This document shows, piece by piece, positions 2,435-63,092 of a DNA stretch of 64,000 nucleotides; position 1 is the stretch's first letter, and each line of letters begins with the position of its first letter. The notes beneath the pieces are model-generated. The model was not told the origin of the DNA. It saw only the letters and a list, made by a program, of their open reading frames with translations, and ran no database searches. The translations under genes and the position numbers were made by a program. Location of the stretch: the NCBI GenBank assembly GCA_951213105.1, contig OX578146.1, forward strand, positions 51,057,275 through 51,121,274. The letters run 5' to 3'. The DNA is from Amaurobius ferox. Lineage: Eukaryota; Arthropoda; Arachnida; Araneae; Amaurobiidae.

Positions 2435-3237
2435 ACTTTCCCTGCAATACATGGTAATGTATAGGGAAAGTATTGGAATCATGCCGAAAATCGCAACTTG
2501 AGTTTTCGACGGATCTACACGTTTCGAGACCTCTAGAATACGAAAAAACCATTTTTAGCTTGACGTCTGTGTGTGTGTCTGTGTGTGTGTCTGTGTGTCT
2601 GTCTGTGTGTCTGTGTGTCTGTCTGTGTGTCTGTCTGTCTGTCTGTGCAGATTTTGTATCCACTCTAACTAAAAAACTAATGGACCGAATTTCACAAAAT
2701 TTGGTAGGTAAGTCACTTGTGAGCGAGTCTGGTGCTGATTAGTTTTGGGTACGATTTGGAATAAAAGAACCCGCCTTTTTTTGCGAAATGGCCCGCAAAA
2801 GCTTGTATCCACTCTAACTGAAAAACTACTGGACTGAATTTCACAAAATTTGGTAGATGAGTCACTTGTGGGTTACCCTGGTGCTGATTAGATTTTGGTA
2901 CGATTCGGAAAAAAATAACCTGCCTTTTTTTTGCAAAATGGCCCGCAAAAATCGTCAAAATCTAAACTAAAGAACTAGGTATACTCAAATATATCCATTA
3001 AATGCTCGTTTAATACGTAATTTTTAACGACGAAAAGAATAAGGCCAACCCTATTACACTAAGACTAGCCGTTCTCGAGCTATTTTAGTTTATCGTACTT
3101 TCCCTACGCCACCTTTGAAAATAAGCCCGGTTACCGAATGAGAACGAAAATTGAATTAAAAGTGCAATAAATTTAATTAAAATAAAGAGAACGTTAATAT
3201 AAGTCTGCAGGGAAAGTCATGTGCTGCTCACATCAGA
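2435..3237 (-). mobile_element. HINE/Helentron-like element, family A, full length
   Basis: On the plus strand it starts with the family A hairpin: arms ACTTTCCCT..ATACAT and ATGTATAGGGAAAGT around a GGTA loop, with a 3-nt GCA bulge. A GT/TCTG microsatellite follows (about 2567-2646), then two copies of a ~149-bp module (TATCCACTCTAACT at 2657 and 2806). It ends CTGCAGGGAAAGTCATG...CATCAGA. The subterminal 12-mer TGCAGGGAAAGT is the inverted partner of the hairpin arm. T runs flank both ends and no target duplication is visible. Non-autonomous: no coding capacity. Confidence 0.8.
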
Positions 3238-3960: not shown

Positions 3961-4004
3961 GTTTGAACGGGCTCAAGCCTGGTTTTTGAAACAAAGTTAA
4001 AATA

Positions 4005-4957
4005 TCTGATGTGGGCAGCACACGACTTTCCTTATATAATGCGATGAATTTACTACTTTTACAGTAAAAGAAAATAGGTTATTCTTATAGCGGACACATA
4101 TTCTTTCCAAGATATTGACCTTTCGTCAATTAGTCGTCATTTTTATCCATTTGGCGAGATGTTAGTTAATTTGGCAGCATTGAAAAAGTCGCCAAGTTGG
4201 CGACATTCCGCCAAACTCGTCGCCAAAATCTCTCCAAGCGTCATGGACGGAGAAATAGTTATTCTTATAGCAGATTGCTGTTCAAATACAAAAGTATTAC
4301 TCGAAGTATCTTTTCTCGAGACTGGAACGAGCTAGATCCACGAGAATGATGTCACCCAATTTATCGCATGATATTATATATGAAAAGTGAACATGTTTCT
4401 CAACAGTTAATATTTTTTTAATTTATAGGATTTTTTTTTATAAATGTAATTTATAAATGTGCAATATCTCGAGAACGGTTCACGATAGCGTTCTAAAGTT
4501 TATGCCAATCGTTTTCTAAGGAAAAATTACATAAGAAATGTCTATTTGCGTAACTTTATTAAAGGTTTTGATTTTTTGATGAATTTTTCAAAATTTCACT
4601 CGAAAATTTAAGGGGGTTCCGAACATTCGATGGTGTTTAAGAACAATAGGCTTCCAGTATTCACGGATTGTAATTTTTGTACCAAATTTCATTCGAATCG
4701 CTTCATTTGTTCGTGAGATATCGTCTCCATAGACTCACTGACACACACACACACACATACACATATACATACTTTCACACACACACACACACATACATAC
4801 TTTCACACACACACGCGCGCGCGCAGACATCACTTCAAAAATATTCGATTCGTGATCAGGGATACTTGAAACGTGCTCTCCCGTCGAAAACTCGAATTCG
4901 AATATTTGACCCCGTCACAATACTTTCCTTATACATTATATGTATATAAGGAAAGTA
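4005..4957 (+). mobile_element. HINE/Helentron-like element, family B, full length
   Basis: Starts TCTGATGTGGGCAGCAC, with the subterminal sequence ACTTTCCTTATATA at about 4022. It carries the internal palindrome GTCGCCAAGTTGGCGAC (4198-4214) and a CA/CACA microsatellite (about 4741-4825). It ends in a hairpin whose right arm is the inverted subterminal sequence, TATATAAGGAAAGTA. The body differs from family A but the layout is identical. Non-coding and non-autonomous. Confidence 0.8.
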
Positions 4958-13868: not shown

Positions 13869-14860
13869 ACTTTCCTTATATACATAGTACAATGTATAAG
13901 GAAAGTATTGTGACGGGGTTGAAAGTTCGAATTCGAGTTTTCGGCGGGAGAGCACGTTTCAAGCATCCCTGATTACGAATTGAACATTTTTGAGGTGATC
14001 TGTGTGTGTGTGTGTGTGTGTGTGTCTGTGTGTGAAAGTATGTGTTTGTGTGTGTGTGTGTCTGTGTGTGAAAGTATGTGTTTGTGTGTGTGTGAAGACA
14101 ATATCTCACGAACGAATGGAGCGATTCGATTGAGATTTGATACAAAAATTACAATCCGTGAATCCTGAATACCGTGAGCCTATTGTTTTTAAACACAATC
14201 GAATGTTCAGAAGCCCCCTAAATTTTCGAGTGAAATTTTGAAACAATCATCAAAAAATCAAAACCTTTAATAATGTTACGCAAATAGACATTTCTTATGT
14301 AATTTTGCTTTAGAAAACGATTGACATAAACTTTGGAACGCTAGAATGAACCTTTTTCGAGATGTTGCACATTTTTCAAATAAATTTATCAAAAAATCCC
14401 ATAAATAAAAAAAATTTAGTAATTGTTGAGAAACATGTTCACTTTTCAGATGTAATATCATACGATAAATTTGGTGACACCATTCTCGTGGATCTAGTTC
14501 GTTCCATTCATGAGAAAAGTTACTTTGAGTACTACTTTTGTATTTGAACACCAATAGTCATTTATCTGCTGTAAGAATAACTTATTTCTCCGTCCATAAG
14601 GTTTGGCGAGATTTTGGCAATGGATTTGGTGGAATGTCGCCAACTTGGCGATTTTTTTCTTAAATGTTGAAAATTGATGAAAATCTCGCCAAATGAATAA
14701 AAATGCCACTAAATCAGTAAAAATGACGACTAATTGACGAAAATTCAATGTCTTGGAAAGAATATAAGTATCTGCTATAAGAATAACCTATTTGTTTTTA
14801 CTGTAAAAGTAGTAAATTCATTGCATTATATAAGGAAAGTCATGTGCTGACCACATCAGA
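13869..14860 (-). mobile_element. HINE/Helentron-like element, family B, full length
   Basis: Starts with the hairpin ACTTTCCTTATATACAT...ATGTATAAGGAAAGT. A GT microsatellite with GTGAAAGTATGTG interruptions spans about 13999-14095. Then come ATCTCACGAACGAATGGAGCG, the GGCGAGATTTTGG palindrome region (14622 on), and the terminus TATAAGGAAAGTCATG...CATCAGA. Flanks are T-rich on both sides. Confidence 0.8.
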
Positions 14861-15384
14861 TTTATTTTACTACAGTTAATTGGGGGTCGCTTGCAGATGA
14901 TAAGAAATAAAACTTCTCTTTTATTAAATTTAAATATGTTTTTAATTCCAATTATTACAAGACATGTCACTCTTTTTATCATTTTGTGCTCGCAAGATCA
15001 CCACCATTAATTTAATGCCCCCTTCCTTCGTTTTATTATCTTTGTTTTTTTAATCTCATCCACTAATGGTGTTTGTTTGGAATTTCAATTATCTCTCTGT
15101 GCTCCTAAGCTATTGTGAAGTTGAAGGTTGGCTGTTATTATTCCCACGAGGTTATAATGGTTAAAACATTAGTTCTGCGGAAACTTTTTCCTCGTTTATT
15201 TAGGCAAGCGCAGAAGATATTTTCGTGATAAATTTGGATTTGGGTTTTTTGCAGTGTTGTGCGTATTGATAATTAGATTCATTTTTTTTTTATATTGTAT
15301 TTACATCTGCTTAAAATGGTATTATTTTTTCACCAATACATATTTTATGATATCATTCCAAGTATAGGAATCATTCAAATTTTT
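14861..15384. other. Unrecognised sequence
   Basis: AT-rich, no gene or repeat recognised. Confidence 0.5.
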
Positions 15385-15424
15385 ACTTTCCCTGTATACA
15401 TAGTATAATGTATACAGGGAAAGC
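15385..15424 (-). mobile_element. Hairpin-only remnant of a HINE-like element
   Basis: ACTTTCCCTGTATACAT, a six-base loop AGTATA, then the near-perfect complement ATGTATACAGGGAAAGC, followed by the family B-like ACTGTGACGA. The rest of the element is absent. The arm sequence is intermediate between families A and B and keeps pairing. Confidence 0.7.
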
Positions 15425-15674
15425 ACTGTGACGACATATATTCTAACTAGTCTGCGTAAATTCGTACTTAGATTTTAAATATCAGTTTAAAAAAAAATGT
15501 AAAATAAAATATTGATATAAATTTTAGATTTAAAAATTATCTAATAAGGGGAATTACTTTGAAAAAAATAAATAGATAGATCTGAAAATTTTAGCATACG
15601 TGAAATAATATTATGCAGAACACTGCATTGCCACACAACTGTCAGAATTAGAGAAGATACAGCATAACATAATT
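15425..15674. other. Unrecognised AT-rich spacer
   Basis: Nothing recognised beyond the hairpin remnant at its left edge. Confidence 0.5.
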
Positions 15675-16536
15675 ACTTTCCCTATATACATAGTATAATG
15701 TATAAGGAAAGTATTGTGACTGGTCGGATATTCGAATTCGAGTTTTCGTCGGAAGAGGAATACCTAAACTCGATTCGAATATAACAACATCCCTAAACTC
15801 GAATCGAACGTTTTTGAGGTGATGTTTGTGTGTGTGTGTGTGCGTGTATGTGTGCGTGTGTATGTGTATGTTTGCGTGTGTTTGTGTATTGACGCTGTCA
15901 TGAATCATTTTCCAGATATTGCATATTTTTCAAATAAATATATCAAAAATTCAGATAAAATTAAAAAAATATTAACTATTGTGAAGCATGTTCACTTTAA
16001 ATATGGAATATTCAGTGACAAATTTGTTAATATCATTCTCGTGGATCAAGTTCATTCCATTCACGAGAGAAGATATTTTGTATATGATAAAAAAAAATTT
16101 ATGATAGAAGATAGTTTTGTATTTTGACACCTAACAATTCGCTAACAGTCATTTATATATAAGAAATGCTCTTCTCTCCATGGTCTACAACGCTTTGATG
16201 ATAAATTTAGCAAACGTGGCCATTCATTTAACGAAATATCGCTAACTTGGCCACATTTTACCCCAGATTAGCGAAAATATCGTCAAAATTGCAAATGACA
16301 ACTATATTATTTATTGCGGATGCTATCAATATTGATAATTGTCAATTTAGAATTGCAGAAATATAAGTTAATTGGGTACTTCAAAACAGTTTTATATGTT
16401 GTCATCCGGAAAAGCGCCAAATGTACAAGTCAATTTTAAACTCATTGTGCCGCAGATTTTATGCATCAGTATTTCACTGTAAAAGGTGTAAATTCATTGT
16501 ATTATATAGGGTAGGTCATGTGCTGCCGACATCAGA
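15675..16536 (-). mobile_element. Family B element with an internal deletion
   Basis: The hairpin and flank (ATTCGAATTCGAGTTTTCG) are intact. The microsatellite (about 15826-15890) is joined directly to CCAGATATTGCATATTTTTC, so the block holding the ATCTCACGAACGAATGG module is missing. The palindrome region and the terminus GTAGGTCATGTGCTGCC..ATCAGA are present but diverged. Confidence 0.75.
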
Positions 16537-16606
16537 TATTTTTAAAACCGCTCTTTATTTTACATCAGCCAGTCTTGCCTTTAGAGATTACAACCTTCCG
16601 ACCGGG

Positions 16607-17630: not shown

Positions 17631-18580
17631 ACTTTCCTTATATACATAATGTATAAGGAAAGTATTGTGACGGGGTCGAAAATTCGAATTCGAGTTTTCG
17701 ACGGGAGAGCACGTTTCAAGCATCCCTGATCACGAATCAAACATTTTTGAAGTGATGTGTGTGTGTGTGTGTATGTGTGTGTGTGTGTGTGAAAGTATGT
17801 GTGTGTGTGTGTGTGTCAGTGAGTCTGTGGAGACGATAACTGACGAACGAATAAACCGATTCGAACCAAATTTGGTACAAAAATCACAATCTGTAAACAC
17901 TGGAAGCCTATTGTTTTTATACGCAATCGAATGTTCAGAACCCCCTAAATTTTCGAATGAAATTTTGAAAAAATCGTCAAAAAATCAAAACCACTAATAA
18001 AGTTACGTAAATAGACATTTCTTATGTAATTTTTCATTAGAAAACGATTGACATAAATTTTAGAACGCTAACATGAACCATTCTCGAGATATTGCACATT
18101 TTTCAAAAAAATTATCAAAAAGTCATATAAAATAGAAAAAAAAATCCTATTGAGAAACATGTTCACTTTTCATATGTAATATCATTCGATAAATTGGGTG
18201 ACATCATTCTCATGGATCTAGTTCGTTCCATTCATAAAAAAAGATACGTTGAGTAATACTTTTGTATTTGAACGCCAATAGTCATTTATCTGCTGTAAGA
18301 ACAACTTATTTCTTTGTCCATAACGCTTGGCGAGATTTTGGCGACGAATTTGACGGAATGTCGCCAACTTGGCGACTTTTTTAAATGTTGCCAAATTAAC
18401 GAAAATCTCGCCAAATGGATAAAAATGGCGCTAAATCAATGAAAATGACGACTCATTGTCGAAAATTCAATATCTTGGAAAGAATATTAGTATCTACTGT
18501 AAGAGAAACCTATTTTTTTACTGTAAAAGTAGTAAATTCATTTCAATATATAAGGAAAGTCATGTGTTGCCCACATCAGA
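17631..18580 (-). mobile_element. HINE/Helentron-like element, family B, full length
   Basis: Hairpin ACTTTCCTTATATACATAATGTATAAGGAAAGT, GT microsatellite (about 17757-17817), ACTGACGAACGAATAAACCG, then the palindrome region. In that region GGCGAGATTTT at 18329 pairs with AAAATCTCGCC ending at 18412. The terminus is TATAAGGAAAGTCATG..CATCAGA. T runs flank it. Confidence 0.85.
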
Positions 18581-28014: not shown

Positions 28015-28019
28015 TTTTT

Positions 28020-28790: not shown

Positions 28791-28795
28791 TTTTT

Positions 28796-29566: not shown

Positions 29567-29571
29567 TTTTT

Positions 29572-31042
29572 ACTTTCCCTGCAATACATGGTAATGCATA
29601 GGAAAAGTATTGGAATCATGACGAAAATCGCAACTCGAGTTTTCGACGGAGCTACACGTTTCGAGACCTCTAGAATACGAAAAAACTATTTTTATCGCGA
29701 CATCTGTGTTTCTGTGCAATGTCTGTATCCACTCTAACTCAAAAACTAAGGGACCGAATTTCATAAAATTTGGTAAGATTCACTTGGATGTGACCCTGGT
29801 GCTGATTAGTTTTTGGTACGATTCGTAAAAAGAGAACCCGCCTTTTTTGGCGAAATGGATCATTATTCGCTCGCATTTTATATTCATTTATTCGCTCGCA
29901 TTTTATATTCATTTATTCGCTCTAGTTAAAGTACTAATTGACCAATTTTCAAAAAATTTGGTAAATAAATTACTTGTTGTATACTCTGGTGCTGATTAGA
30001 TTTTGGTACGATTCGGAAAAGAACAATCTGCCTTTTTTTACGAAATGGGCCGCAAATATCGCCAAAATCTAAAAAAAAAAAAGTCTACATATGCTGAAAT
30101 GTATCAGTTAAATTCTTGTTATATACGCATGATTTTTGACGAGGAAAAGAATGTAACACACTCCATTATACTTTAGGACTAACCGTTCTCAAGATATTTG
30201 AGATTTCTTGCATTTTTGTTACGCCGCTATCGGGAAAATATCCCATTACCAAAAAATCTGATGTGGGCAATACATGACTTTCCTTATATAATGTAATGAA
30301 TTTACTACTTTTACAGTAAAAAAATAGGTCTTTCTTATAGTAGATACTAATATTCTTGCCAAGATATTGAATTTTCGACAATTAGTCGTAATTTTCATTG
30401 ATTTAGCGTCATTTTTATCCATTTGGCGAGATTTTCGTTAATTTGGCAACATTTCAAAAAGTCGCCAAGTTGGTGACATTCCGCCAAATTCGTCGCCAAA
30501 ATCTCGCCAAGCGTTATGCTCTAAGAAATAAGTTATTCTTACAACAGATAAATGACTATTGGCGTTCAAATACAAAAGTATTACTCAAATTATCTTTTTT
30601 CATGAATGGAACGAGCTAGATCCACGAAAATGATGTCACCCAATTTATCGCATGGTATTACATATGAAAAGTGAATATGTTTCTCAGTAGAAAATATGTT
30701 TTCTTATTTTATATGACTTTTTGATAATTTTTTTTAAATTTTTTTTTATTTTGAAAAATGTACAATATCTCGAGAACGGTTCATGTTAGCGTTCTAAAAT
30801 TTATGTCAATCGTTTTCTAATGAAAAATTACATAAGAAATGTCTATTTGCGTAACTTTATTAGTGGTTTTGATTTTTTGACGATTTTTTCAAAATTTCAT
30901 TCGAAAATTTAGGGGGGTTCTGAACATTCGATTGCGCATAAAAACAATAGGCTTCCAGTGTTTACGGATTGTGATTTTTGTACCAAATTTGGTTTGAATC
31001 GGCCCATTCGTTCGTCAGTTATCGTCTCCACAGTCTCACTGA

Positions 31043-33875: not shown

Positions 33876-33981
33876 TGCGTATAATAATAATAAGATACTT
33901 CTAATTGTCATAAATAATATCATGCGTATAATAATAATAAAATCATTTTTGTCATAAATAACATGATGCGTATAATAATAA
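33876..33981. repeat. 46-bp tandem repeat, left block
   Basis: TGCGTATAATAATAA recurs at 33876, 33923 and 33967 with ATTGTCATAAATAA between. It continues on the far side of the family C element (35297-35480). Confidence 0.85.
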
Positions 33982-35296
33982 CAAGAAAGATCAATCATGC
34001 TTAAAGCATTGATTATGAAACACTTTCCAACTTCAATGCAATTTTATTTAAACAAATCTAAAATGCAATACATTCCTCGGTAATATTTTGAAACTTATCA
34101 CAATACTGCATTAATTTATTATATTTGAAAACTTAAACCTTCATCGAAAAAAATGAACTTCATTCAAATGACGGCATTGGAATATAAATTGCCTGGTTTA
34201 AACATCTCTAAAATGTTATACATTCCTCGGTAATAGTTTTAGAATTATCATAATACTACGATAATTTATTATATTTGAAAACGTCATCGAAAACAACTGA
34301 AATTAATTCAAATGACGTCATAGAAAAAATAACACGCCTGGATCTCTCTATAAAAACAGGATTTCATTCATAACTTTCTCCCATTCATTTCATTCATCAC
34401 AATACTATAATAATTTTTTTTATTTAAACATTTTGTTTAAGACCATGGAGCTACAAAAAATTAAACTCTATGCTTGAAACTTCATCGAAAAAAATCGTCC
34501 TTCTCTTTATGAAATCAATTAATATTTCATTCATATCAGCCATGCAGACTCCATGGACTAAATTATTTTGTGTTAAAAAAATACAGGAATTCTAATACAA
34601 CTCATTCTATATATTTTGCTGTTTACATTTTACATAGGTGAAAAATAGACTTAGTTGTAGAAATAATCAAATTTAGATGAGCATTTAAACTCAAATATAT
34701 TGTCATTGCGTTGTTTCAGTATGTAGATGCACAGAATTTAAGCAAAAATAAAGTAGTTTTAGGACGGATACAGCACTCAATATGAATTAAAAAGAACTTA
34801 AAAAAATCACGATTTTGAAACAAGATGGATGCCATATATCATTTTGAAGTGGGTTATGTGATCGTTTCATATCATGGTCACGTGATCGTTTCATATAAGA
34901 GGTGTAATTATTATTTTAATTTTTATTTAAAAAACTACTGAATATATTTCGCTGAATTTTTTTTTATATATTTTATGGAACAATTTGAATATTACCTAAA
35001 ATTTTCGAAGCAATTTGTGAATTTTAAATCCGCTTAAAAAATGTTTGAAAAATTAGGTCCCATAGGGCTCAATGTATTTCATTTTTTCGACCCGGGTTCA
35101 ATTCAAAACTAATTGGGTGATATTATTCATTTATATTCCCATAGGTTCTACAGACCGTCTGAACAACATACTAAAATTTCATTTTGCTTAAGTCATTTTT
35201 ACTGCAGTTATCGTGCTAACGGACAGACAGACAGACAGACAGACAGACAGAATGAACAAAGTCATAAACACTTTTCAACTTTGTTGCAAAGTGTTA
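33982..35296 (+). mobile_element. HINE-like element, family C, full length
   Basis: The 5' region CAAGAAAGATCAATC is followed by subterminal AACACTTTCCAACTT. Near the 3' end come a GACA microsatellite (35222-35250) and a hairpin AACACTTTTCAAC...GTTGCAAAGTGTT. The layout is that of families A and B with a different sequence. It is inserted precisely inside a 46-bp tandem array. No coding capacity. Confidence 0.75.
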
Positions 35297-35480
35297 ATAA
35301 AATCATTTTTGTTATAAATAACATAATGCGTATAATAGTAAGAAAATACTTTTAATTGTCATAAATAAGATAATGCGTGTAATAATAATAAAATACTTTT
35401 AATTGTCATAAATTACATCATGCTTATAACAATAAAATAATTTTAATTGTCATAAATAATATGATGCGTATAATAATAAT
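35297..35480. repeat. 46-bp tandem repeat, right block
   Basis: Units at about 35327, 35373, 35420 and 35464 match the left block. Confidence 0.85.
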
Positions 35481-36654: not shown

Positions 36655-37416
36655 ACTTTCCCTGCAATACATGGTAATGTATAGGGAAAGTATTGGAATC
36701 ATGCCGAAAATCGCAACTCGAGTTTTCGACGGATCTACACGTTTCGAGACCTTCAGAATACGAAAAAAACATTTTTAGCGTGACGTCTGTGTGTGTGTCT
36801 GTCTGTCTGTGTGTCTGTCTGTCTGTGCAGATTTTGTATCCACTCTAACTAAAAAACTAATGGACCGAATTTCACAAAATTTTGTAGGTAAGTCACTTGT
36901 GGGCGGGGCTGGTGCTGATTAGTTTTGGGTACGATTCGGAATAAAAGAACCTGCCTTTTTTTGCGAAATGGCCCGCAAAAGCTTGTATCCACTCTAGCTG
37001 AAAAACTAATGGACCGAATTCACAAAATTCGGTAGATGAGCCACGTATAGGTCACCCTGGTGCTGATTAGATTTTGGTGCGATTCAGAAAAAAATAACCT
37101 GCCTTTTTTTGCAGAATGGCCCCTAAAAATTGTCAAAATCTAAACTAAAAAGCTACGTATGCTCAAATATATCCATTAAATGCTTGTTTAATGCGTAATT
37201 TTTAACGAAGAAAAGAATAAGACCAACCCCATTACACTAGGACTAGCCGTTCTCGAGATATATTAGTTTTTTTCGTATTTTTCCAGGCCACCTTTAAAAA
37301 TAAGTCCAGTTATCAAATGAGAACGAAAATTGAATTAAAAGTGAATTAAATTTAATTGAAATAAATAGAACGTGGATATAAGTTTGCAGGGAAAGTCATG
37401 TGCTGTCCACATCAGA
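36655..37416 (-). mobile_element. HINE/Helentron-like element, family A, full length
   Basis: Complete hairpin, TCTG microsatellite (36790-36830), two ~149-bp modules and terminus TTTGCAGGGAAAGTCATG..CATCAGA. Flanked by T runs (CTTTTT left, TTTTTC right). Confidence 0.85.
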
Positions 37417-37683
37417 TTTTTCTTTTTCTTTTTATCTTATTGCTGCTAAATAAGAATTTATATTTAGTTAAATATACCCCATGCATTCATTCACTAATTT
37501 CATACACAGTGGATATACTTAAATTTTTAAACTATTTTTTTTTTTAATTTTCCTTCACTTTTAAATTAACAAAAAATCTGATGTTAGTAGTATATGACTT
37601 TTCGCATACAGATTTAATTCATTATCTCATTCACAAAACATTAAATTGAGTTTATTTGAGCAATCAGACATGGATACGTATTG

Positions 37684-38710
37684 CTATCCTTATATGCATA
37701 GTATAATGTATAAGAAAAGTATTGTGACAGGGTCGAAAATTCGAATTCGAGTTTTCGACGAGAAAGCACGTTCCAAGCATCCCTGATCACGAATCGAACA
37801 TTTTTGAAGTGTTGTCCTTGTGTGTGTGTGAAAGTATGTGTGTGTGTGTGTGTCTGTGAAAGTATGCGTGTGTGTGTGTGTGTGAAAGTATGTGTGTATA
37901 TGTGTGTGAAAGTATGTGTGTGTATGTGTGTGAAAGTATGTATGTGTGTATGTCAGTGAGATTGTGGAAACGATATCTCACGAACGAATGGAGCGATTCG
38001 AATGAAATTTGGTACAAAAATTGCAATCCGTTAATAGTGGAAGCTCATTGTTTTTAAACACAATCGAATGTTCAGAACACACTAAATTTTTGAGTGAAAT
38101 TTTGGAAAAATCATCAGAAAATCAAAACCTTTAATAAAGTTGCGCAAATAGACATTCCTTATGTAATTTTTCCTTAAACGATTGACATAAAATTTAGAAC
38201 GCTAGCATGAATCGTTTTCGAGATATTGCACATTTTTCAAATAAATTTATCAAAAAATCCCATAAATTAAAAAAGAATATTAACTGTTGAAAAACATGTT
38301 CACTTTTCATATGTAATATCATGCGATAAATTTGATGACATCATTCTCGTGGATCTAGCTCATTCCATTCATGAGAAAATATATTTTGAGTAATACTTTT
38401 GTATTTGAACACCAGTAGTCATTTATCTGCTATAAGAATAAGTTATTTCTCCGTCCAGAACGCTTGGCGAGATTTTGGCGATGAGTGTCGACAACTTAGC
38501 AACTTTTTTAAATGTTGTCAAATTAACAAAGATCTCGCCAAATGAATAAAAATGACACTAAGTCAATAAAAATGACGACTAATTTGTGAAAATTAAATAT
38601 CTTGGAAAGAATATAAGTATCTACTATAAAAATAACCTATTTTCTTTTTACGGTAAAAGTAGTAAATTCATTGCATTATATAAGGAAAGTCCTGTGCTGG
38701 CCACATCAGA
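37684..38710 (-). mobile_element. HINE/Helentron-like element, family B, full length
   Basis: The hairpin is slightly decayed (TATCCTTATATGCATAGTAT). Then come a GTGTGAAAGTATG microsatellite (about 37820-37950), ATCTCACGAACGAATGGAGCG, the palindrome region (38467 on) and terminus TAAGGAAAGTCCTG..CATCAGA. A decayed family 5' end (AATCTGATGTTAGTAG) lies just upstream at 37576. Confidence 0.8.
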
Positions 38711-41639: not shown

Positions 41640-41823
41640 AGCGTTTTTAATTAATATCTCGATAACCCCTAAGTCTAGAAACGTGAAACTTGGAGAGGTT
41701 ACACTACACGCAGAGTAGAGATTAGTTATATTGAATTTGAGGGGGAGGGGGGAACGTAAAAAACAGTGGATTTGCAAACAGAATTGACAAACAAACCAAC
41801 ATACTTTTGATTATATATATAGA
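41640..41823 (-). mobile_element. 5' fragment of a canonical Helitron
   Basis: On the minus strand it begins A|TCTATATATATAATC and runs into TTGGTTTGTTTGTC, then CCAAGTTTCACGTTTCTAG and GGGGTTATCGAGATATTA. This is the start expected of canonical Helitrons and parallels the complete copy at 59.8 kb. The 3' end is not found. Confidence 0.55.
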
Positions 41824-46130: not shown

Positions 46131-46182
46131 TCTTTTGTAATTTTCCAACATTCACACTAGATAACATATTTTCTTATTATTA

Positions 46183-47362
46183 ACACTTTACAACAAAGTT
46201 GAAAAGTGTTTATGACTTTGTTCATTCTGTCTGTCTGTCTGTCCGTTAGCACGATAACTGCTGTAAAAATGACTTAATCAAAATGAAATTTTAGTATGTT
46301 GTTCAGACGGCCTGTAGGACCTATGGGAATATAAATGAATAATATCACCCAATTTAGTTTTGGATTGAACCCGGGTTGAAAAAATGAAATACATTGAACC
46401 CTATGGAACCTAATTTTTCAAACATTTTTAAACGGATTTAAAATCCACAAATTGCTTCGAAAATTTTAGGTAATATTCAAATTATTCCATAAAATATATA
46501 AAAAAAATTTCAGCAAAATATATTCAGTAGTTTTTTAAATAAAAATTAAAATAATAGTTACACCTCTTATATGAAGCGATCACGTGACCATGATATGAAA
46601 AGCTCACGTGTCCCACTTCAAAATGAAATATGGCATTCATCTTGTCTTAAAATCGTGATTTTTAAAGTTCTTTTTAATTCATATTGAGTGTTGTATCCGT
46701 CCTAAAATCGCTTTATGTTTGCTTAAATTCTGTGCATCTACATACTGAAACAACGCAGTTACAATATATTTCAGTTTAAATGATCATCCAAATTTGATTA
46801 TTTCTACAACGAAGCCTATTTTTCACTTATGTAATATGTAAACAGCAAAATATGTAGAATGAGTTGTATAAGAATTGCTGTATTTCTTTAACGCAAAATT
46901 ATTAAGTTTTTAAATGAAATAAATTATTTTAGTACTGTGATGAATGAAATGAATTGGAAAATGTTTATGAATGAAATGTTGCTTTTATAGAGAGAGCTAG
47001 GCGTGTTATTTTTTCTATGACGTTATTTGAATGAATTTCAGTTGTTTTTGATGAAATTTTCAAATATAATAAATTATTGTAGTATTATGCTAATTTTAAA
47101 AATATTACCGAGGAATGTATCGCATTTTAGAGATGTTTAAACTAGGCAATTTATATTTCAATGCCGTCATTTGAATGAAGTTCATTTTTTTCGATGAAGG
47201 TTTAAGTTTTCAAATATAATAAATTAATGTAGCATTGTGATAAGTTTTAAAATATTACTTAGGAATGCATTGCATTTTAGAGATGTTTAAATAAAATTGC
47301 ATTGAAGTTGGAAAGTGTTTCATAATCAATGCTTTAAGCATGATTGATCTTTCTTGTTACCG
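46183..47362 (-). mobile_element. HINE-like element, family C, full length
   Basis: Begins with the hairpin AACACTTTACAAC..GTTGAAAAGTGTT and a TCTG microsatellite (46228-46243). It ends GATTGATCTTTCTTG, the reverse of the 33982 copy. The body matches that copy throughout, including ACACCTCTTATATGAAGCG and AATATTACCGAGGAATG. Confidence 0.8.
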
Positions 47363-47378
47363 ACATATTTTTGATTTT

Positions 47379-47430
47379 TAACACTTTACAACAAAGTTAA
47401 AAAGTGTTTATGACTTTGTTTAAATATCAT
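47379..47430 (-). mobile_element. Family C hairpin end, tandem fragment
   Basis: A second AACACTTTACAAC..AAAAAGTGTTTATGAC hairpin follows 16 bp after the previous copy, then the element stops. Confidence 0.7.
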
Positions 47431-49503: not shown

Positions 49504-50250
49504 TCTGATATGGGCAGCACATGACTTTCCCTGCAGACTTATATTCACGTTCTCTTTATTTTAATTACATTTAATTCACTTTTTATTCAATTTTCGTTCT
49601 CATTTGATAACTGGACTTATTTTCAAAGGTGGCGTAGAGAAAATACGAAAAAACTAAAATATCTCGAGAACGGCTAGTCCTAGTGTAATGAGGTTGGTCT
49701 TATTCTTTTCTTCGTTAAAAATCACGTATTAAACAAGCATTTTATGGATATATTTGAGCATACGTAGTTTTTTATTTTAGATTTTGGCGATTTCTGTGGG
49801 CCATTTTGCATAAAAAGGCAGGTTATTTTTTTCCGAATCATACCAAAATGTAATCAGCACCAGGGTGTCCCACAAGCGACTTACCTACCAAATTTTGTGG
49901 AATTCGGTCCATTAGTTTTTCAGCTAGAGTGGATACAAGCTTTTGTGGGCTATTTCGCAAAAAAAGGCGGGTTCTTTAATCCCGAATCGTACCCAAAACT
50001 AATCAGCACCAGATTCGCCCACAAGTGACTTACCTACCAAATTTTATGAAATTCGGTCAACTACTTTTTTAGTTAGAGTGGATACAAAATCTGCACAGAC
50101 AGACAGAGACACACACAGATGTCACGCTAAAAATAGTTTTTTCGTATTCTAGAAGTCTCGAAACGTGTAGATCCGTTGAAAACTCGAGTTGCGATTTTCG
50201 ACATGATTCCAATACTTTCCTATAAATTACAATGTATTGCAGGGAAAGTA
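49504..50250 (+). mobile_element. HINE-like family A, second of a tandem pair
   Basis: Starts TCTGATATGGGCAGCAC three bases after the previous copy's hairpin. Body complete, short CAGA microsatellite (50094-50105), hairpin ending GCAGGGAAAGTA. Confidence 0.85.
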
Positions 50251-50600: not shown

Positions 50601-50655
50601 TTATAATCTACAAGCGTGAACTTTGATCTTGGTGCGCAGCACATTGGAATTTATT

Positions 50656-51414
50656 ACTTTCCCTGCAATACATGGTAATGTATAGGGAAAGTATTGGAAT
50701 CATGTCGAAAATCGCAACTCGAGTTTTCGACGGATCTACACGTTTCGAGACCTCTAGAATACGAAAAAACTATTTTTAGCGCGACGTCTGTGTGTGTGTC
50801 TGTGTGTCTGTCTGTCTGTCTGTGCAGATTTTGTATCCACTCTAACTGAAAAACTAATTGACCGAATTTCATAAAATTTGATAGGTATGTCACTTGTGGG
50901 CGAATCTGGTGCTGATTAGTTTTTGGTAAGATTCGGGATAAAAGAACCCGCCTTTTTTTGCGAAATGGCCCGCAAAGGCTTGTATCCACTCTAGCTAAAA
51001 ATCCAATAGACCGAATTTCACAAAATTTGGTAGATAAGGCGCTTATTGGTCACCCTGGTGCTGATTAGATTTTGGTACGATTCGAAAATAAATAACCTGC
51101 CTTTTTTTGCAAAATGGTCCGCAAAAATCGCCAAAATTTAAAATAAAGAACTACGTATGCTCAAATATGTCCATTAAATGCTCGTTTAATACGTAATTTT
51201 TAACGAAGAAAAGAATAAGACCAACCCCATTACACTCGGACTAGCCGTTCTCAGGAAATTTTAGTTTTTTCGTATTTTCTCTACGCCATCTTTGAAAATA
51301 AGTCCAGTTATCAAATGAGATCGAAAATTGAATTTAAAGTGAATTAAATTTAATTAAAATAAAGAGAACGTGAATATAAGTCTGCAGGGAAAGTCATGTG
51401 CTGCCCCCATCAGA
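50656..51414 (-). mobile_element. HINE/Helentron-like element, family A, full length
   Basis: Complete hairpin, TCTG microsatellite (50788-50824), two modules and terminus CTGCAGGGAAAGTCATG..CATCAGA, T-rich flanks. Confidence 0.85.
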
Positions 51415-51539
51415 TTTTTTATTTTGCTATATTAACATAGAGGATCTGAGTTGTGTTTATTTGACGATAGAAGATTATTTAGGTCATTTTCAATTTTTCT
51501 TCATTAATGACATGGAACGATTCTTAGATTCTCCCTACA

Positions 51540-55907: not shown

Positions 55908-56844
55908 ACTTTCCTTATATACATAATGTATAAGGAAAGTATTGTGACGGGGGAGAGAATTCGAATTCGAGTTTTCGACGGGAGAGCACGTTTCAAGCAT
56001 CCCTGATCACGAATCAGACATTTTTGAAGTGATGTCTATGTGTGTGTGTGTGTGTGTGTGTGAAAGTATGTGTGTGTGTGTGTGTGTGTGTCAGTGAGTC
56101 TGTGGAGACGATAACTGACGAACGAATGGACCGATTCGAACCAAATTTGGTACAAAAATCACAATCCGTAAACACTGGAAGCCTATTGTTTTTATACGTA
56201 ATCGAATGTTAAGAACCCCACTAAATTTTCGAATGAAATTTTGAAAAAATCGTCAAAAAATCAAACCGCTAATAAAGTTACGCAAATAGACATTTCTTAT
56301 GTAATTTTTCATTAGAAAACGATTGGCATAAATTTTAGAACGCTAACATGAACCGTTCTCGAGATATTGTACATTTTTTCAAAAAAATTATGAAAAAGTC
56401 ACATAAAAAAAAAAAATTCCTATTGAGAAACATGTTCACTTTTCATATGTAAATACCATGCGATAAATTGAGTGACATCATTCTCGTGGATCTAGCTCGT
56501 TCCATTCATGAAAAAATATACTTTGAATAATACTTTTGTATTTGAACGCCAATAGTCATTTATCTGCTGTAAGAATAACTTTTTTCTTAGTGCATAACGC
56601 TTGGCGAGATTTTGGCGGAATGTCGCCAACTTGGCGCCTTTTTTGAAATGTTGCCAAATTAATGAAAATCTCGCCAAATGGATAAAAATGATGCTAAATC
56701 AATGAAAATGATGACTAATTGTCGAAAATTCAATATCTTGGAAAGAATATTAGTATCTACTATAAGAAAAACCTATTTTATTACTGTAAAAGTAGTAAAT
56801 TCATTAAAATTATATAAGGAAAGTCATGTGTTGCCCACATCAGA
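55908..56844 (-). mobile_element. HINE/Helentron-like element, family B, full length
   Basis: Hairpin ACTTTCCTTATATACATAATGTATAAGGAAAGT, GT microsatellite (about 56038-56091), ACTGACGAACGAATGGACCG, palindrome region from 56602, terminus TATAAGGAAAGTCATG..CATCAGA, then T run. Confidence 0.85.
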
Positions 56845-56912
56845 TTTTTTTTTATTTTAAATCGTTATATCTCTAACTATATGGAGAAGGAAATTGTTTC
56901 AGAAGCATTATT

Positions 56913-57677
56913 ACTTTCCCTGCAATACATGGTAATGTATAGGGAAAGTATTGGAATCATGTCGAAAATTGCAACTCGAGTTTTCGATGAATCTACGCGT
57001 TTCGAGACCTCTACAATACGAAAAAACTATTTTTAGCGTGATGTCTGTGTAATGTATGTATCCACTCTAACTCAAAAACTAATGGATCGAATTTCATAAA
57101 ATTTGGTAGGTAAGGCCCTTGGGTGTGACCCTGGTGCTGATTAGTTTTTGGTACAATTCGGGAAAAAAGAACTCGCCTTTTTTGCGAAATGGTCCTCAAA
57201 AATCTAATGTATTCGCTCTAGCTGAAATACAAATTGACCAAATTTCACAAAATTCGGTAGATAAATCACATGTAGGATACTCTGGTGCTGATTAGATTTT
57301 GGTACTATTCGGAAAAGAACAACCTGCCTTTTTTTTTACAAAATGGCTCGCAAAAATCGCTAATATCTAAAAAAAGACTACGTATGTTCAAATGCATCAA
57401 TTAAATACTTGTTTTATACGTAATTTTTGACGAAGAAAAGAATAAGAACAACTCTCTTACTCTAGGACTAACCGTTCTCGAGATATTTGAGATTTTTCGC
57501 ATTTTTATATGCCGCCTTTGGAAAAATGTCCAATTACCAAGTAAAAGTAGGAATTGAATTAAAAATGGAAATTTAGTGTCATTTTGTGCAATAAAACTCA
57601 ATTTAATGAGTTCTTAAAGAAATAAAGAAAAAATGAATTTGAGTCTGCAGGGAAAGTCATATGCTGCCCACATCAGA
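56913..57677 (-). mobile_element. HINE/Helentron-like element, family A, full length
   Basis: Complete hairpin; the microsatellite is reduced to GTCTGTGTAATG. Two modules, terminus CTGCAGGGAAAGTCATATGC..CATCAGA. The body is the long subtype of array units 2-4. Confidence 0.85.
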
Positions 57678-59782
57678 TTTTTTTTACTTGTTACAATCAA
57701 GAAAGCATTACAAATAAAGCGTTTGGTTGACTTGTTTCGAATAAGAAAGTATTACAAGCACGATGCATGTACTTCATTATTTACAAAAAGAAACAAAAAC
57801 ATTATAGTAAAATCATTTAAAACCAGGGTAATCGTTGTTTGAGAATCAAATAAATTTGACTCTCTTTTCTTACACCATACAAGGGATTTACAAAATTGAA
57901 ACAGACACTAGGGATAATTCATCCATCCTGGCTCCGAAAAGGGAAAAGGAGAAAATACAACTGGAGATGGAGGGATTATATTTTAGAGGGGCTGCACATG
58001 ATTGAATCGTATTAGTCACTTCTTCCCCTATCCCTGCAGTAGCGTCCCCTATCCCTGCGTGTGGTGGAGTCGGGATTTGTGGGAGGGTTGGATTGAATGT
58101 CATTGATTGTCGTCTGCCCAGGGAATGTTTACAGAGAGTGGTCTTATCAGGTCTGTGATATGGTTAGCAATAATTGGGCTGATAATCAGTAAGGAGACAT
58201 GCTTAGCGACTGCCAGTTATTGAACGGGCCAGGATTGGCTTAGCCCGTCCTGTTAAAAAACAGTTATTCATATTCTGAAGTATGACTACTTGGTAGAGTG
58301 GGGAAGTAGTTCAATCAATAAAGACATGAACCCTCAACAAATTCATGTAAAGCTGAATTTTGGCACATGAATAGTACTTACTAAAACATATATTTTCCCA
58401 AAAGCCCCCTAAACTCCGACCCTTGCTTTCCCCCCCCCCTCCTCTGAAGTATCGAATTGCAGCGTTTAGGGATTTATTTTATTTCTGGTGAATGGAACCT
58501 CGTACAAAGATGCAGTTGGTTTTAAATTACTTCAAATATAATGATAAATGTGTTTTTCAATATATTTTGTACATATATTCTGTTTATTTTTTTACAAATT
58601 TCATAAATATGCTTATTTTGTATTGGATTTATCTAATTTTTTGTGTTTTAACAATAAGTAGACTTTTAAAATCCAAACATATTTCAACTAAATTTATGTT
58701 ACATTAAAGTATATTTTACAAGGTTTAAATTGATATACAATAGTTCTTACTTGTACGTAAAATTGAGCAGCTGGTGACGTAATTGCTGGACGCCGTCCTG
58801 AGCGTCGTCATTGAGGCAGGATTTCAACTGTGCTTTAAATTTCATTATATACTCTTCCTTGTAAGTGATGATTTACAAGAAAAAGAACCATTTGTCGATA
58901 ATTTTACTTCTGAGATGACTTGGTATATAGTAATTATACAGACAACTATGCATACATTTTGAGTTTTCAGTGGATTAAAGTAGCCGATCCGCATGCTTTT
59001 CAAATACGAGAAACATTTTCATTAAGCTCTGCCTGTTACCAATTCCGAGAAATTAATTTTTTTTCTATCAGCCCCAAAACTTTCAAGTTGCTTTTATCTA
59101 TTTTAATATTCTTGCTTGAGTGATAATGCAAATTTTGTAAGGCGAGTTGCAATTATCGTAAAGTGATGCTGTTATTCGTTAGAATCATAAGGCCCTAAAT
59201 AAATTCAATTTCGAAAATTTTCGAAGACTGGACACCTTCTTGTAAACCATCACATATAATTAATCTTCTATTCTTTTTGTAATTTGTGAAAAACTTAGAT
59301 TGCTGAGAAACTGAGCTGATGTTTGAACCATATTATTCTATATATATATATAGTGATTTTTGATTTTACTGCAATAGCTATGAATATTTATCAAATGAAT
59401 TTAATAGAAATTATAGATTATTTAGATTTGTCAAATCTTTATATTGCAACCGAGCTTTAATTTTAAAATATTTTCGATTACTTTCAATTTTGTACTATAG
59501 CATTTTACACTTCAAAGTCACTGGAATCCACTTTCCTCCACTGGAATTTCCTTCACTGGAATCCATTTTCGCATTGAAACAATAAAGTCCGTTACAATAT
59601 CCGCACATAGACGTGCAAAGAAAAGTTGATCAGCGACAACTACATGAATGAACACAAGCAGCTTTACAATTGCAGGAAATACTTAATAACAATTCTTGTG
59701 GTGATACCGGACAGGTTGTTGGAATTTGTGTTAAATTACACCATCTTCATTTGTCCATCCCCAATCAGTAGATACAATTTTA
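57678..59782. other. Unrecognised sequence
   Basis: No gene or repeat recognised. A C10 run lies near 58431 and a short GGAATCCACTTTCC-type local duplication at 59520-59568. Confidence 0.5.
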
Positions 59783-61201
59783 TCTATATAAGTAAAATTG
59801 AAAATCTGTCTTACTGTCTGTCTGTCTGTCTGTCTGTGTGTTTGTCCCGCCATCACGGGAGAACGGCGAAACCGAATTTGATAAAATTTTGTGGATAGCT
59901 TGGAAATAGTTCCACTTAAAATTTAGTCTATGAAGTTTCTACGATCAGTGGTTCTCGAGATATTAGTAAAAAACAAAATTTTCGTTTGTCTCATCATAAC
60001 GGGAGAACAGCTGAACCGAATTTGATGAAATTTTGTGGATAGCCTTGAAATAGCCCCCATAAATTCAGCCCAAGCTTCGAGTATCTAAGACCAGGGGTTG
60101 TCGAGATATTAATGAAAAACGAAACTTTTTCCTAGGAGTTCTACTCTCTAACTCCGTGGTTTATCCAAACGAAAAGCTTGAAAATCGTTTGAAAGTGAAT
60201 TAAAACCTTATCTCTGAGTTTGATAGGAGATTTTTTGCGCTAATTAATCATTTTCTGAAAACATGAATTGTTTGAAAAATGATTTAAATGGGAAATCTAT
60301 CTCCATGGTTTATATTTCACAAGCTTTTACTGAACAATGAAAAGTATAAAGAAATCAAAATGGTTATTTAATTTCGCAGTTTATGAGGAAGATTCTATCT
60401 TATATCATGTTGCTCAGAAACGCAATTAAATTATATCTGTATGTTAATTTTAATTATTATTTTTTCGATTTGAATAATAAATAAATGGATATAAAAATAT
60501 ATTTTAGAAAAGAACTATTTCATTTTTCTTATAGCATTTTTGACTGGAGAATATCAATTACGGTCTTCAGGTTTAAACGTTATTATCATTGATATTTTCT
60601 GGGATAATTGATTCAGGGATTATTGATATTTTCAAGTTATTATGCAATTGTTTTATTATGACAAAATTTGTTTAAACTCATATATTGTACGTTGTACGAG
60701 TAATCTTCTACAAATACACGAGTATATCTTCTAATCTACGAGAATCTAAGTAGTACAGGTATATTGGCATATGTTTTGATGTATATTGGAATCAATTACG
60801 ACCTTCTGGTATAAAGAGTACGGGGATATTGATATTTTCAATTGATTACCTCATCTCTTTTATTTTGGCAAAGATTTTTGAGACTCATATTGTAATACGG
60901 GTAATCTTCTACTAACACACTGGCATATTTTCTAATCTGCGACAATATAAGTAGTACTGTGTTGCATAATTGATTCAATTCCTTTTTTTTTTTTTTTTTT
61001 GTAAATTTGCTTACAAAAGGGGCCAGGATGTTTTTCTCTTCAGATCTGTCCGTGAAGATAATATTGCATAGTGAGAACATATATTCTTAAACTTCTCTTT
61101 AGGGGCAATAAATTTAATATTTTAACAGAATTTGCACATAATTGCGAATTATAAGTTTCTTTATATTATATACTCCGTACGAAGAACGGGTATGCTGCTA
61201 G
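59783..61201 (+). mobile_element. Complete canonical Helitron, non-autonomous
   Basis: Starts TCTATATAAGTAAAATTG after an A and ends GGGTATGCTGCTAG before a T, so it sits in an A|T target with no duplication. A hairpin (CCGT at 61175-61178, ACGG at 61186-61189) precedes the CTAG end by about 9 bases. Inside, a TCTG run (about 59806-59838) is followed by two ~143-bp modules (ACCGAATTTGATRAAATTTT at 59871 and 60014). The remaining ~1 kb is AT-rich and encodes no Rep/helicase. Confidence 0.85.
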
Positions 61202-61467: not shown

Positions 61468-62419
61468 ACTTTCCTTATATACATAATGTATAAGGAAAGT
61501 ATTGTGACGGGGTCGAAAATTCGAATTCGAGTTTTCGACGGGAGAGCACGTTTCAAGCATCCCTGATCACGAATCAAACATTTTTGAGGTGATGTCTGTG
61601 TGTTTGTGTGTGAAAATGTGTGTGTGTGTGTGGGGGGGATGTGTGTGTGTCAGTGAGTCTGTGGAGACGATATCTCACGAACGAATGGAGCGATTCGAAT
61701 GAAATTTGGTACAAAAATCACAATCCATGAATACTGGAAGCCTATTCTATTTAACCGTAATCGAATGTTCAGAACCCCCCTAAATTTTCGAGTGAAATTT
61801 TGAAAAAATCATCAAAAAATCAAAACCTTTAATAAAAGTACGCAAATAGACATTTCTTGTGTAATGTTTCCTTAGAAAACGATTGATATAAACTTTAGAA
61901 AGCTAGCATAAACCGTTCTCGAGATATTGCATATTTTTCAAATAAATTTATAAAAAAAAATTCCCATAAATTAAAAAAAATATATTAACTGTTGAGAAAC
62001 ATGTTCACTTTTCATATGTAAATCATGCGATAAATTTGGTGACATCATTCTGGTGAATCTAGCTAGTTCCATTCATAAGAAAAGATACGTTAAGTAATAC
62101 ATTTGTATTTGAATGTCAATAGTCATTTATCTGCTATAAGAATAACTTATTTCTCCGTCCATAACGCTTGGCGAGATTTTGGCGGCGAATTTGGCGAAAT
62201 GTCGCCAACTTGGCGACTTTTTAAATGTTGCCAAATTAACGAAAATCTCGCCAAATGGATAAAAATGACGCTAAATCGATGAAAATGATGACTAATTAAA
62301 GAAAGTTCAATATCTTGTAAAGAATATAAGTATCTACTATAAGAATAACATTGTTTTAACTGTAAAAGTAGTAAATTGATTGCATTATATAAGGAAAGTC
62401 ATGTGTTGCCCACATCCGA
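61468..62419 (-). mobile_element. HINE/Helentron-like element, family B, full length
   Basis: Hairpin as in the 17.6-kb copy, GT microsatellite with a G7 interruption (about 61597-61650), ATCTCACGAACGAATGGAGCG, palindrome region from 62168, terminus TATAAGGAAAGTCATG..CATCCGA, then T run. Confidence 0.85.
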
Positions 62420-63092
62420 TTTTTTGAAGACTGAATGAGATTTACTGTTTTAAATTTCCTGACAGCATACAGAGGGGAGGAGGTGCCACATCCAGCAACA
62501 CTATGAGTGAATAAAAACGGCTTGCAAATGTTTCCGTAGATGCACACAAATTTATCAATAATGTGTATAATAGATAGATTGGCAGAATTAGGAGATGGTT
62601 TAAAGAAAAATATAGATGAAGCTGTTTCTTGCGCTAATGCCAAAAGCAAAACCAGCAAATCAGTATCCGTGCCAACAACAACGTTGTGATACGATGGAAT
62701 TTTGTTTAATGCAATATCAGTATGCCTCAGCCATCAAAACATCAATGTTTTTCTTCAACAGGTGTTGTGATAATAATGCTATTAATCTTCACTTTCTGTA
62801 ATTTGCGGGAAAACTGTGCAATACATTCTATGTTTTCAATAAATAAAATATAAGCTGCAGCTCTCTTGGTTGTTCTTCTTAATTGTTCCTGTTGTTTAGT
62901 CAGGATAGCCGTCAAGAACTACAATGATGTTGGAACAATACCTTTCATTTTAGACTAGCCGCTTTCGGCGACCAGCCTGTTCACTATGCTTGAAAATTCT
63001 GACCGTGGCAAACTCGCTGGACCCCGTGGAGTTAACAAAGTTTGTTTTAGTTTAATGTCGTTAAAACTAATAATGAAATTTTAAGATGAAAA
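62420..63092. other. Unrecognised sequence
   Basis: No gene or repeat recognised. A 100-codon minus-strand frame overlaps the end of the family B copy and has no domain. Confidence 0.5.

What the first reader, a model, noticed from the sequence alone, without database searches (positions are those of the whole stretch)
59783..60140. One inward-facing module shared by families A, B, C and the canonical Helitron
In four otherwise unrelated element types, a TCTG/GT run is followed by the same kind of sequence: (GA)ACCGAATTTSATRAAATTTKG or AACGAATGGAGCGATTCGAA then ATGAAATTTGGTA, with TCTCGAGATATT downstream. In A and the Helitron it is duplicated at ~149 and ~143 bp. Similar TATCTCG...ATGAAATTTGG text also appears in unassigned DNA near 45075 and 51800. 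A conserved module across families suggests either modular exchange or a functional signal for rolling-circle replication.
Basis: partly seen in the sequence, partly recalled or inferred. Interest (0 to 1): 0.75.

Follow-up and report, generated by a model that had tools for sequence, protein, structure and literature searches.

The report
Shared inner sequence of jumping-gene ends
Two structurally different kinds of rolling-circle jumping genes in this animal-like DNA carry the same short sequence just inside their left ends, after a GT-rich repeat; this suggests a shared inherited or exchanged left-end part, but what it does is not shown.

Summary
The window is AT-rich, eukaryote-like DNA full of rolling-circle-type repeats. 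A canonical Helitron (59783-61201: TC...CTAG, A/T flanks) carries, 5 nt after a TCTG/GT tract, a 45-nt core, repeated 144 bp on. HINE/DINE-1-like families A and B carry the same core after their own tracts. A profile built from A/B alone scores 21.0 and 28.3 on the two Helitron cores; the best of 15,256 element-free tiles of the window scores 8.1. Apart from a second 26-nt motif and weak stray matches, the rest of the Helitron does not match A/B.

Corrections: A, B and C are one related group, not unrelated types. The C-like element I examined lacks the core. The sites at 45075 and 51800 are not beyond chance. There is no covariation, and no sign of extra constraint on the core inside A units.

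GT(CY) tracts in the left parts of both DINE-1-like elements and canonical Helitrons are in print; I did not find the shared post-tract core described. My reading is an inner part of the left terminal sequence, shared by homology; a role in transposase recognition or helicase loading is inferred. No animal genome could be searched.

The parts
59783..61201 (+). canonical non-autonomous Helitron (1419 bp): 5' TC, 3' CTAG, flanked by A and T
   Evidence: 3' stem-loop predicted
59805..59847 (+). TCTG/GT tract of the Helitron, from position 23 of the element
59853..59897 (+). core, Helitron unit 1 (positions 71-115 from the left end)
59939..59964 (+). second motif, unit 1 (ends GTTCTCGAGATATT)
59997..60041 (+). 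core, Helitron unit 2 (144 bp after unit 1)
60085..60110 (+). second motif, unit 2
61170..61193 (+). 3' stem-loop of the Helitron, ending 8 nt before the 3' terminus (weak: 25 of 200 shuffles fold as well)
41640..41823 (-). left part of a second, degraded canonical Helitron (TCTATATATATAAT, GTTTGTTTGTC); core lost, second motif kept at 41653-41678; right end not found
2666..2710 (+). core unit 1 of a family A HINE (element about 2434-3242)
36846..36890 (+). core unit 1 of a family A HINE (element about 36654-37421)
50843..50887 (+). core unit 1 of a family A HINE (element about 50655-51419)
57068..57112 (+). core unit 1 of a family A HINE (element about 56912-57682)
50031..50075 (-). core unit 1 of a family A HINE on the minus strand
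14102..14146 (+). core of a family B HINE (element about 13869-14865)
17837..17881 (+). core of a family B HINE (element about 17631-18585)
37974..38018 (+). core of a family B HINE
56112..56156 (+). core of a family B HINE (element about 55908-56849)
61671..61715 (+). core of a family B HINE (element about 61468-62424)
4676..4720 (-). core of a family B HINE on the minus strand (element about 4000-4960)
30977..31021 (-). core of a family B HINE on the minus strand
15380..16545 (+). C-like elements: two HINE left ends in a row; the tract at 15824-15887 is followed by a degraded second motif, core absent
46177..47359 (+). D element (ends approximate): HINE-like with other subTIRs (AACACTTT / AAAGTGTT), TCTG tract at 46226-46244, core not significant
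33979..35305 (-). second D element (ends approximate), TCTG tract at 35221-35251, core not significant

Best explanation
The feature is the inner part of a left terminal module of rolling-circle transposons. Its order is: outer end (a 5' TC end in the Helitron, a subTIR plus inverted repeat in the HINEs), spacer, TCTG/GT tract, 45-nt core (consensus about TAACT...GAAC.AATGGACCGAATTTGATGAAATTTGGTAGATA), and later a second motif ending GTTCTCGAGATATT. It is shared by homology between Helentron-type non-autonomous elements (families A and B) and a canonical Helitron whose ends are otherwise different. Shown here: the sharing, the position after the tract, the strand, and the tandem duplication of the core with its unit. 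Inferred: the module belongs to the left terminal sequence that a RepHel transposase uses; the A-poor top strand of the tract would stay unstructured when opened, and the core would give a sequence-specific contact for transposase binding or helicase loading next to the nicked left end. I put about 0.85 on shared homology as a left-end module and about 0.35 on the recognition/loading role. The confidence below is for the two together, weighted to the first.
For: Held-out profiles recover each lineage from the others with 0 of 15,256 element-free tiles as good: the Helitron from A+B (21.0 and 28.3, best background 8.1), B from A+Helitron (24.0 and 31.8, background 12.4), A from B+Helitron (36.1 and 35.2, background 9.4); two copies of each were tested. 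The A+B HMM ranks the Helitron units first and second in 44.6 kb, and the first 16 hits of the Helitron HMM outside the Helitron are all family A cores. The cores align without gaps over 45 columns: A1-H2 32, A1-B 31, B-H2 27 identical. With the tract masked, blastn of the Helitron against 3 A elements gives its best matches at the core (E 0.002 at best) and further ones at the second motif; against 2 B elements it finds the second motif only. The A/B consensus alignment is good from the left end through the core, then breaks down until the 3' end, so the core is the inner border of the conserved left block. All 9 exact TCTCGAGATATT copies lie in A, B or Helitron elements. The tract is left unpaired in the predicted fold of the Helitron's left 118 nt. 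In the reconstructed Helitron Helraiser a 150-bp left terminal sequence is essential and the cleavage determinants lie in the last 40 nt (PMC4778049, PMC5876387, passages); here the tract and core unit 1 fill positions 23-115.
Against: No functional test exists. The core is absent from the degraded Helitron at 41823(-) and the C-like element, and not significant in D, although D has the same layout. In family A the core is not kept better than the rest of the unit (lower in 4 of 7 copies). No covariation. Pairwise, B-H2 is weak (44-68 of 3000 controls as good) and B-H1 not significant (844-1189 of 3000). Only one intact canonical Helitron is in the window, so 'Helitron' rests on one copy. An earlier, shorter held-out test whose training included D was weaker for the Helitron (2 and 41 of 119,786 positions as good). 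The two Helitron units are tandem copies and the A and B copies are related, so the independent comparisons are few. Stray weak matches of the Helitron outside core and motif (E 0.08-0.94) also occur in A, B and D.
Confidence: 0.55

Rival explanations
1. Passenger exchange: the tract-plus-core segment moved between Helitron and HINE lineages by capture, end bypass or recombination at the GT tracts, and has no role in transposition.
For: Helitrons capture flanking DNA by 3'-end bypass (PMC4778049, passages). Only the inner segment is clearly shared while the outer ends differ. No core-specific constraint in A units. Elements without the core exist.
Against: The segment keeps its place next to the tract, its strand and its nearness to the left end in both classes. 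The identity matrix is star-like, with no nested donor-recipient pattern.
Confidence: 0.27
2. The core and second motif are host-facing rather than transposase-facing: a promoter, chromatin or nucleosome-phasing unit carried by both element types, with repeat units near 145-149 bp.
For: Unit spacing of 144 bp (Helitron) and 147-151 bp in 7 of 10 A pairs. Short satellite-like arrays inside HINEs are known (PMC7492417, passages).
Against: B has a single strong core and no such unit. Nothing here tests transcription or chromatin. In A the whole unit, not the core, is conserved.
Confidence: 0.12
3. Chance or AT-rich convergence: AAATTT-type text next to GT tracts looks alike without common origin.
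For: The region is AT-rich. The D core is not distinguishable from background (2870 and 3563 of 15,256 tiles as good), and the 45075 and 51800 sites are at chance level.
Against: Held-out scores lie 12.9 bits or more above the best element-free tile for the Helitron and 11.6 or more for B. A-B, A-H1 and A-H2: 0 of 3000 in each of three controls.
Confidence: 0.04

Closest known systems
DINE-1 / INE-1 / mini-me and other HINEs (non-autonomous Helentrons)
   Same: 5' subTIR plus inverted repeat, a GTCY-rich tract in the left block, central tandem repeats, 3' subTIR and palindrome, T-rich ends (PMC2374699, PMC4067079, PMC3630058, PMC7492417; passages seen). Families A, B and D have this layout.
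   Different: Sequences were not compared, as none of theirs is held. The described mini-me/DINE-1 core includes the (TA)4 repeat (PMC2374699, passage); from recall it lies on the 5' side of the GTCY tract, whereas the core here lies on the 3' side.
Hel-2 canonical Helitrons of Lepidoptera (BmHel-2, OnHel-2)
   Same: TC...CTAG ends, A/T flanks, 3' hairpin and a (CTGT)n tract in the left part (PMC4344730, section 5 read), as in the Helitron at 59783-61201.
   Different: Hel-2 has a described 5' inverted repeat and subterminal inverted repeat, which I did not establish here. I could not compare sequence, as no Hel-2 sequence is held.
Lepidopteran MINE-2 elements with hitchhiking (GTCY)n
   Same: Elements that carry a (GTCY)n tract (title and citation seen; details recalled).
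   Different: Not compared by sequence. A resemblance of the post-tract text is recalled, untested.
Helraiser / Helibat1 left terminal sequence
   Same: A left terminal sequence of 150 bp is essential (passages); tract plus core unit 1 would fall inside such a stretch.
   Different: No sequence relation was tested; the passages I saw mention no GT tract.

Membership tests
canonical Helitron (59783-61201) | 5' TC and 3' CTRR termini | tested here: met
   TC at 59783-59784, CTAG at 61198-61201
canonical Helitron (59783-61201) | inserted between A and T, no target duplication | tested here: met
   A at 59782 and T at 61202; no empty site was available
canonical Helitron (59783-61201) | hairpin close upstream of the 3' end | tested here: inconclusive
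   8-bp stem with one bulge ending 8 nt before the terminus, but 25 of 200 shuffles fold as well
canonical Helitron (59783-61201) | RepHel protein (autonomous members) | tested here: inconclusive
   Of the stop-to-stop frames of 70 aa or more, two overlap the element, 95 and 82 aa; the 10 ORFs sent to Pfam did not include them
HINE / DINE-1-like (families A, B) | 5' subTIR with adjacent inverted repeat | tested here: met
   0 of 200 shuffles fold as well for one A and one B left end, z -6.5 and -6.9
HINE / DINE-1-like (families A, B) | 3' subTIR followed by a palindrome near the 3' end | tested here: met
   GGAAAGTCATGTG...CACATCAGATTTTT at 25 sites allowing 7 mismatches (five of them belong to one tandem array); the folding energy of the palindrome is not unusual (36 of 200 shuffles as good for one B, 100 of 200 for one A)
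HINE / DINE-1-like (families A, B) | GTCY-rich tract in the left block | tested here: met
   GT-rich rather than pure GTCY in B
HINE / DINE-1-like (families A, B) | mobilised by an endonuclease-bearing Helentron | not testable with these tools
   no Helentron protein was seen among the few ORFs examined; the whole genome could not be reached
HINE / DINE-1-like (D element) | subTIRs, 3' palindrome, GTCY tract | tested here: met
   AACACTTT/AAAGTGTT, ATCAATGCTTTAAGCATGATTGAT, (TCTG)n in two copies with a common 3' boundary; left hairpin 1 of 200 shuffles as good, right palindrome 14 of 200
shared post-tract core | 45-nt core found by a profile built without the tested lineage | tested here: met
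   met for A, B and Helitron; not met for D; absent from the C-like element
Helitron left terminal sequence (function) | required for transposition | not testable with these tools
   needs a transposition assay

The most novel reading that the evidence does not exclude
Helitron-type and Helentron-type rolling-circle transposons, which differ in their termini and in their transposases, use one common sequence-specific inner left-end signal (GT/TCTG tract plus 45-nt core). It is either inherited from before their split or exchanged and kept, so that one element class can compete for or borrow the other's machinery.
Probability: 0.25. Interest if true: 0.65.

Novelty: new member of a known kind. 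Interest (0 to 1): 0.4.

Why it matters
How Helitron and Helentron transposases find the left end beyond the last 40 nt appears to be open (my reading; not searched in depth). A short core that recurs behind the tract in both classes is a concrete, testable candidate. It may also help explain why separate (GTCY)n microsatellites in invertebrates have similar flanks. If it is only a passenger, it is still a handle for finding degraded rolling-circle elements.

Tried and rejected
Hairpin/covariation: the A core is nearly palindromic (ACCGAATTT CATA AAATTTGGT), but no pair has a change on both sides (0 of 9), the covariation score (0.066) is below the shuffle mean (0.077), and RNAalifold gives no pairs. 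The alignment held 26 of the 34 core rows; I left out two near copies (A_28986, A_29136), A_32085, A_37022, A_49165-, B_14140 and both D rows.

Extra constraint on the core after duplication: not found for A (7 of the 10 pairs). In the Helitron's two units the core and second motif are better kept than the stretch between them, but that is one pair.

D as a third lineage with the core: unproven. D shares pieces in the same register with B, but B-D has 95-288 of 3000 controls as good, and the profile test fails.

Sites at 45075 and 51800 as further copies: not beyond chance. A hit at 51616(-), score 15.5, lies in no element I recognised and was not followed up.

Core in prokaryotes and viruses: a 20-base general form of the core hit 3 contigs of genome contigs, none with a tract upstream in the 200 bases shown; two look like coding text. 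Viral scans gave 0 for four patterns. Plasmid and phage blastn gave no match. These collections are not of animal genomes, so the absence says nothing about animals.

Host identification by spurious proteins: no hits at E 0.01. A Pfam scan of 10 window ORFs gave three weak matches, all below their cut-offs.

Errors of mine: the core of B_14140 was mis-anchored, and A_37022 has a 1-nt deletion, so both score low there. In one search the rows with no background position as good were 20 of 23 for A, 6 of 7 for B, 0 of 2 for the Helitron, 0 of 2 for D. One search centred the queries on the match, so its counts are optimistic; sampled element-free tiles reach scores 30 and 34, so the second motif alone is only supportive.

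Literature: 10 paper searches did not show the post-tract core described. The Wilder and Hollocher 2001 and Coates 2011 papers were seen only as citations and not looked up. A hit listed (PMC3039978) could not be located in its main text.

Full report
WHAT THE REGION IS. The window is AT-rich (26-40 % GC), with no tRNA by ARAGORN's bacterial setting and no Rfam match at gathering score and nothing above cut-off among the 10 ORFs sent to Pfam. It is crowded with rolling-circle-type repeats. I could not name the host: the genome tool did not complete and two protein searches gave nothing. It reads like an invertebrate genome (recall, not tested).

THE HELITRON. 59783-61201 begins TC, ends CTAG, is flanked by A and T, and has a predicted stem-loop ending 8 nt before its 3' end. 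From position 23 runs a TCTG/GT tract. Five nt after the tract starts a 45-nt stretch, the core (59853-59897). A second copy follows 144 bp on (59997-60041). Each unit also has a second motif ending TCGAGATATT (59939-59964, 60085-60110). A second left end of the same type lies at 41823 on the minus strand, with a short tract and the second motif but no core.

FAMILIES A AND B. Both fit the HINE/DINE-1 layout: left subTIR and inverted repeat forming a strong hairpin (0 of 200 shuffles as stable for one A and one B), spacer, GT/TCTG tract, core, variable middle, right subTIR, ATGTG...CACAT palindrome and T-rich end. Their consensuses (6 A and 7 B copies) align through the whole left block up to and just past the core, and again over the last ~35 nt. 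They are therefore relatives, not unrelated types. A has two core-bearing units, 147-151 bp apart in 7 of 10 pairs. The C-like elements at 15380-16545 look like B relatives in which the tract runs straight into a degraded second motif; the core is gone.

IS THE SHARED MODULE BEYOND CHANCE? I used real DNA of the same window as the main null, because it keeps AT-richness and local text. With A+B as the only training, the Helitron cores score 21.0 and 28.3 while the best of 15,256 element-free 90-nt tiles (every fifth start, both strands) reaches 8.1. With A+Helitron as training, two B copies score 24.0 and 31.8 against a best of 12.4. With B+Helitron as training, two A copies score 36.1 and 35.2 against 9.4. 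A gapped HMM of A+B puts the two Helitron units first and second in the 44.6 kb left after masking A/B/C (E 0.003, 0.018), and 1 of 100 shuffles beats the first. In reverse, the first 16 hits of the Helitron HMM outside the Helitron are all A cores. Pairwise, A-B and A-Helitron had 0 of 3000 as good in each of three controls; B-H2 is weaker (44-68 of 3000) and B-H1 is not significant. An earlier held-out test on a 28-nt core with D in the training gave the Helitron 2 and 41 of 119,786 positions as good. With the tract masked, blastn of the Helitron finds the core and second motif in 3 A elements and only the second motif in 2 B elements; other matches are scattered and weak (E 0.08-0.94), including one to the middle of D.

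POSITION. Of 27 GT/TCTG tracts by my definition, 18 are followed by the core, 5 to 41 nt after the tract (profile trained on all families). The 9 without it are the C-like element, the two D elements, one degraded A-like element and five others. All 30 core hits with score 20 or more lie in A-, B- or Helitron-type elements; those without a tract upstream are second units of A. Between 12 and 20 there are four more: a degraded B-like copy, two in A or A-like DNA, and one at 51616(-) in no recognised element; 30 shuffles had on average 1.2 hits of 12 or more and 19.0 at most. As a control, none of 123 TCTG tracts in 120 IMG/VR loci is followed by the core.

THE D ELEMENTS. About 46177-47359 (+) and 33979-35305 (-) share other subTIRs (AACACTTT/AAAGTGTT), a 3' palindrome and a TCTG tract. 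Their post-tract text has pieces in the same register as B (B-D: 95-288 of 3000 controls as good), but the profile test does not support it (2870 and 3563 of 15,256 tiles as good). They show that the layout can exist without a recognisable core, or with a core too changed to see.

STRUCTURE AND CONSTRAINT. The A core could form a 9-bp hairpin, but across 24 distinct sequences no pair changes on both sides and the score is below the shuffle mean; RNAalifold predicts nothing. What is shared is sequence, not a fold. In 7 of the 10 A pairs tested, the core of unit 1 against unit 2 is better kept than the rest in 3 and worse in 4. In the Helitron the core and second motif are better kept than the stretch between. 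The 45-column identities are star-like (A1-H2 32, A1-B 31, B-H2 27), so they do not tell descent from exchange.

HOW IT MIGHT WORK. Helraiser needs its 150-bp left terminal sequence, while cleavage information lies in the last 40 nt (PMC4778049 and PMC5876387, passages). Tract and core unit 1 occupy positions 23-115 of the Helitron, so an inner contact for the transposase, with an unstructured tract beside it for strand opening or helicase entry, is a natural guess. That step is inferred. The passenger reading (captured or recombined segment) is the main rival and is not excluded.

WHAT IS KNOWN. GTCY tracts inside the left block are established for DINE-1-like elements (PMC2374699, PMC4067079, PMC3630058, PMC7492417; passages), and a (CTGT)n tract is reported for canonical Hel-2 Helitrons (PMC4344730, section 5). 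I did not find the post-tract core described in ten searches of the open library; papers of subscription journals are mostly not held. From recall, very similar text follows the GTCY tract in other arthropod repeats; that is a lead, not a result.

VERDICT. A real, position-specific sequence shared by Helentron-type and Helitron-type elements, in two lineages rather than four. The elements are ordinary members of known kinds. The shared inner core is a modest but testable finding.

Noticed in passing
27280-29571 and 31416: Family A HINEs stand directly head to tail (...CAGATTTTT|ACTTTCCCTGCA...) with no DNA between at 28019, 28795, 29571 and 31415; two neighbours 776 bp apart are near copies (95 % over 300 nt). 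This looks like rolling-circle concatemers.
   Followed up: partly
53773-55782: Five nearly identical (99-100 %) 402-bp tandem copies that contain a family A right end and, before it, an inverted piece of a family A left end.
   Followed up: partly
46177-47359 (+) and 33979-35305 (-): D, a further HINE-like family with its own subTIRs and 3' palindrome; a truncated left end follows at 47372-47420, and ~150-bp repeats lie inside.
   Followed up: partly
59775-59800: The Helitron's left boundary lies inside an inverted repeat CAATTTTA...TAAAATTG that spans flank and element; the flank of the degraded Helitron at 41823(-) also ends in ATTTTA. The outer boundary may include more than the TC end, or the insertion site is preferred.
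   Followed up: no
24008-24966 and 17290-17570: Other tandem arrays: ~135/270-bp units, and three identical 93-bp copies.
   Followed up: no
14311, 38172, 56313 (+), 4491 (-): A weak second core-like text (scores 9.4-10.3) inside family B, just before its second motif; possibly an old second unit.
   Followed up: no
51616 (-): A core-like hit (score 15.5) outside any element that I recognised.
   Followed up: no
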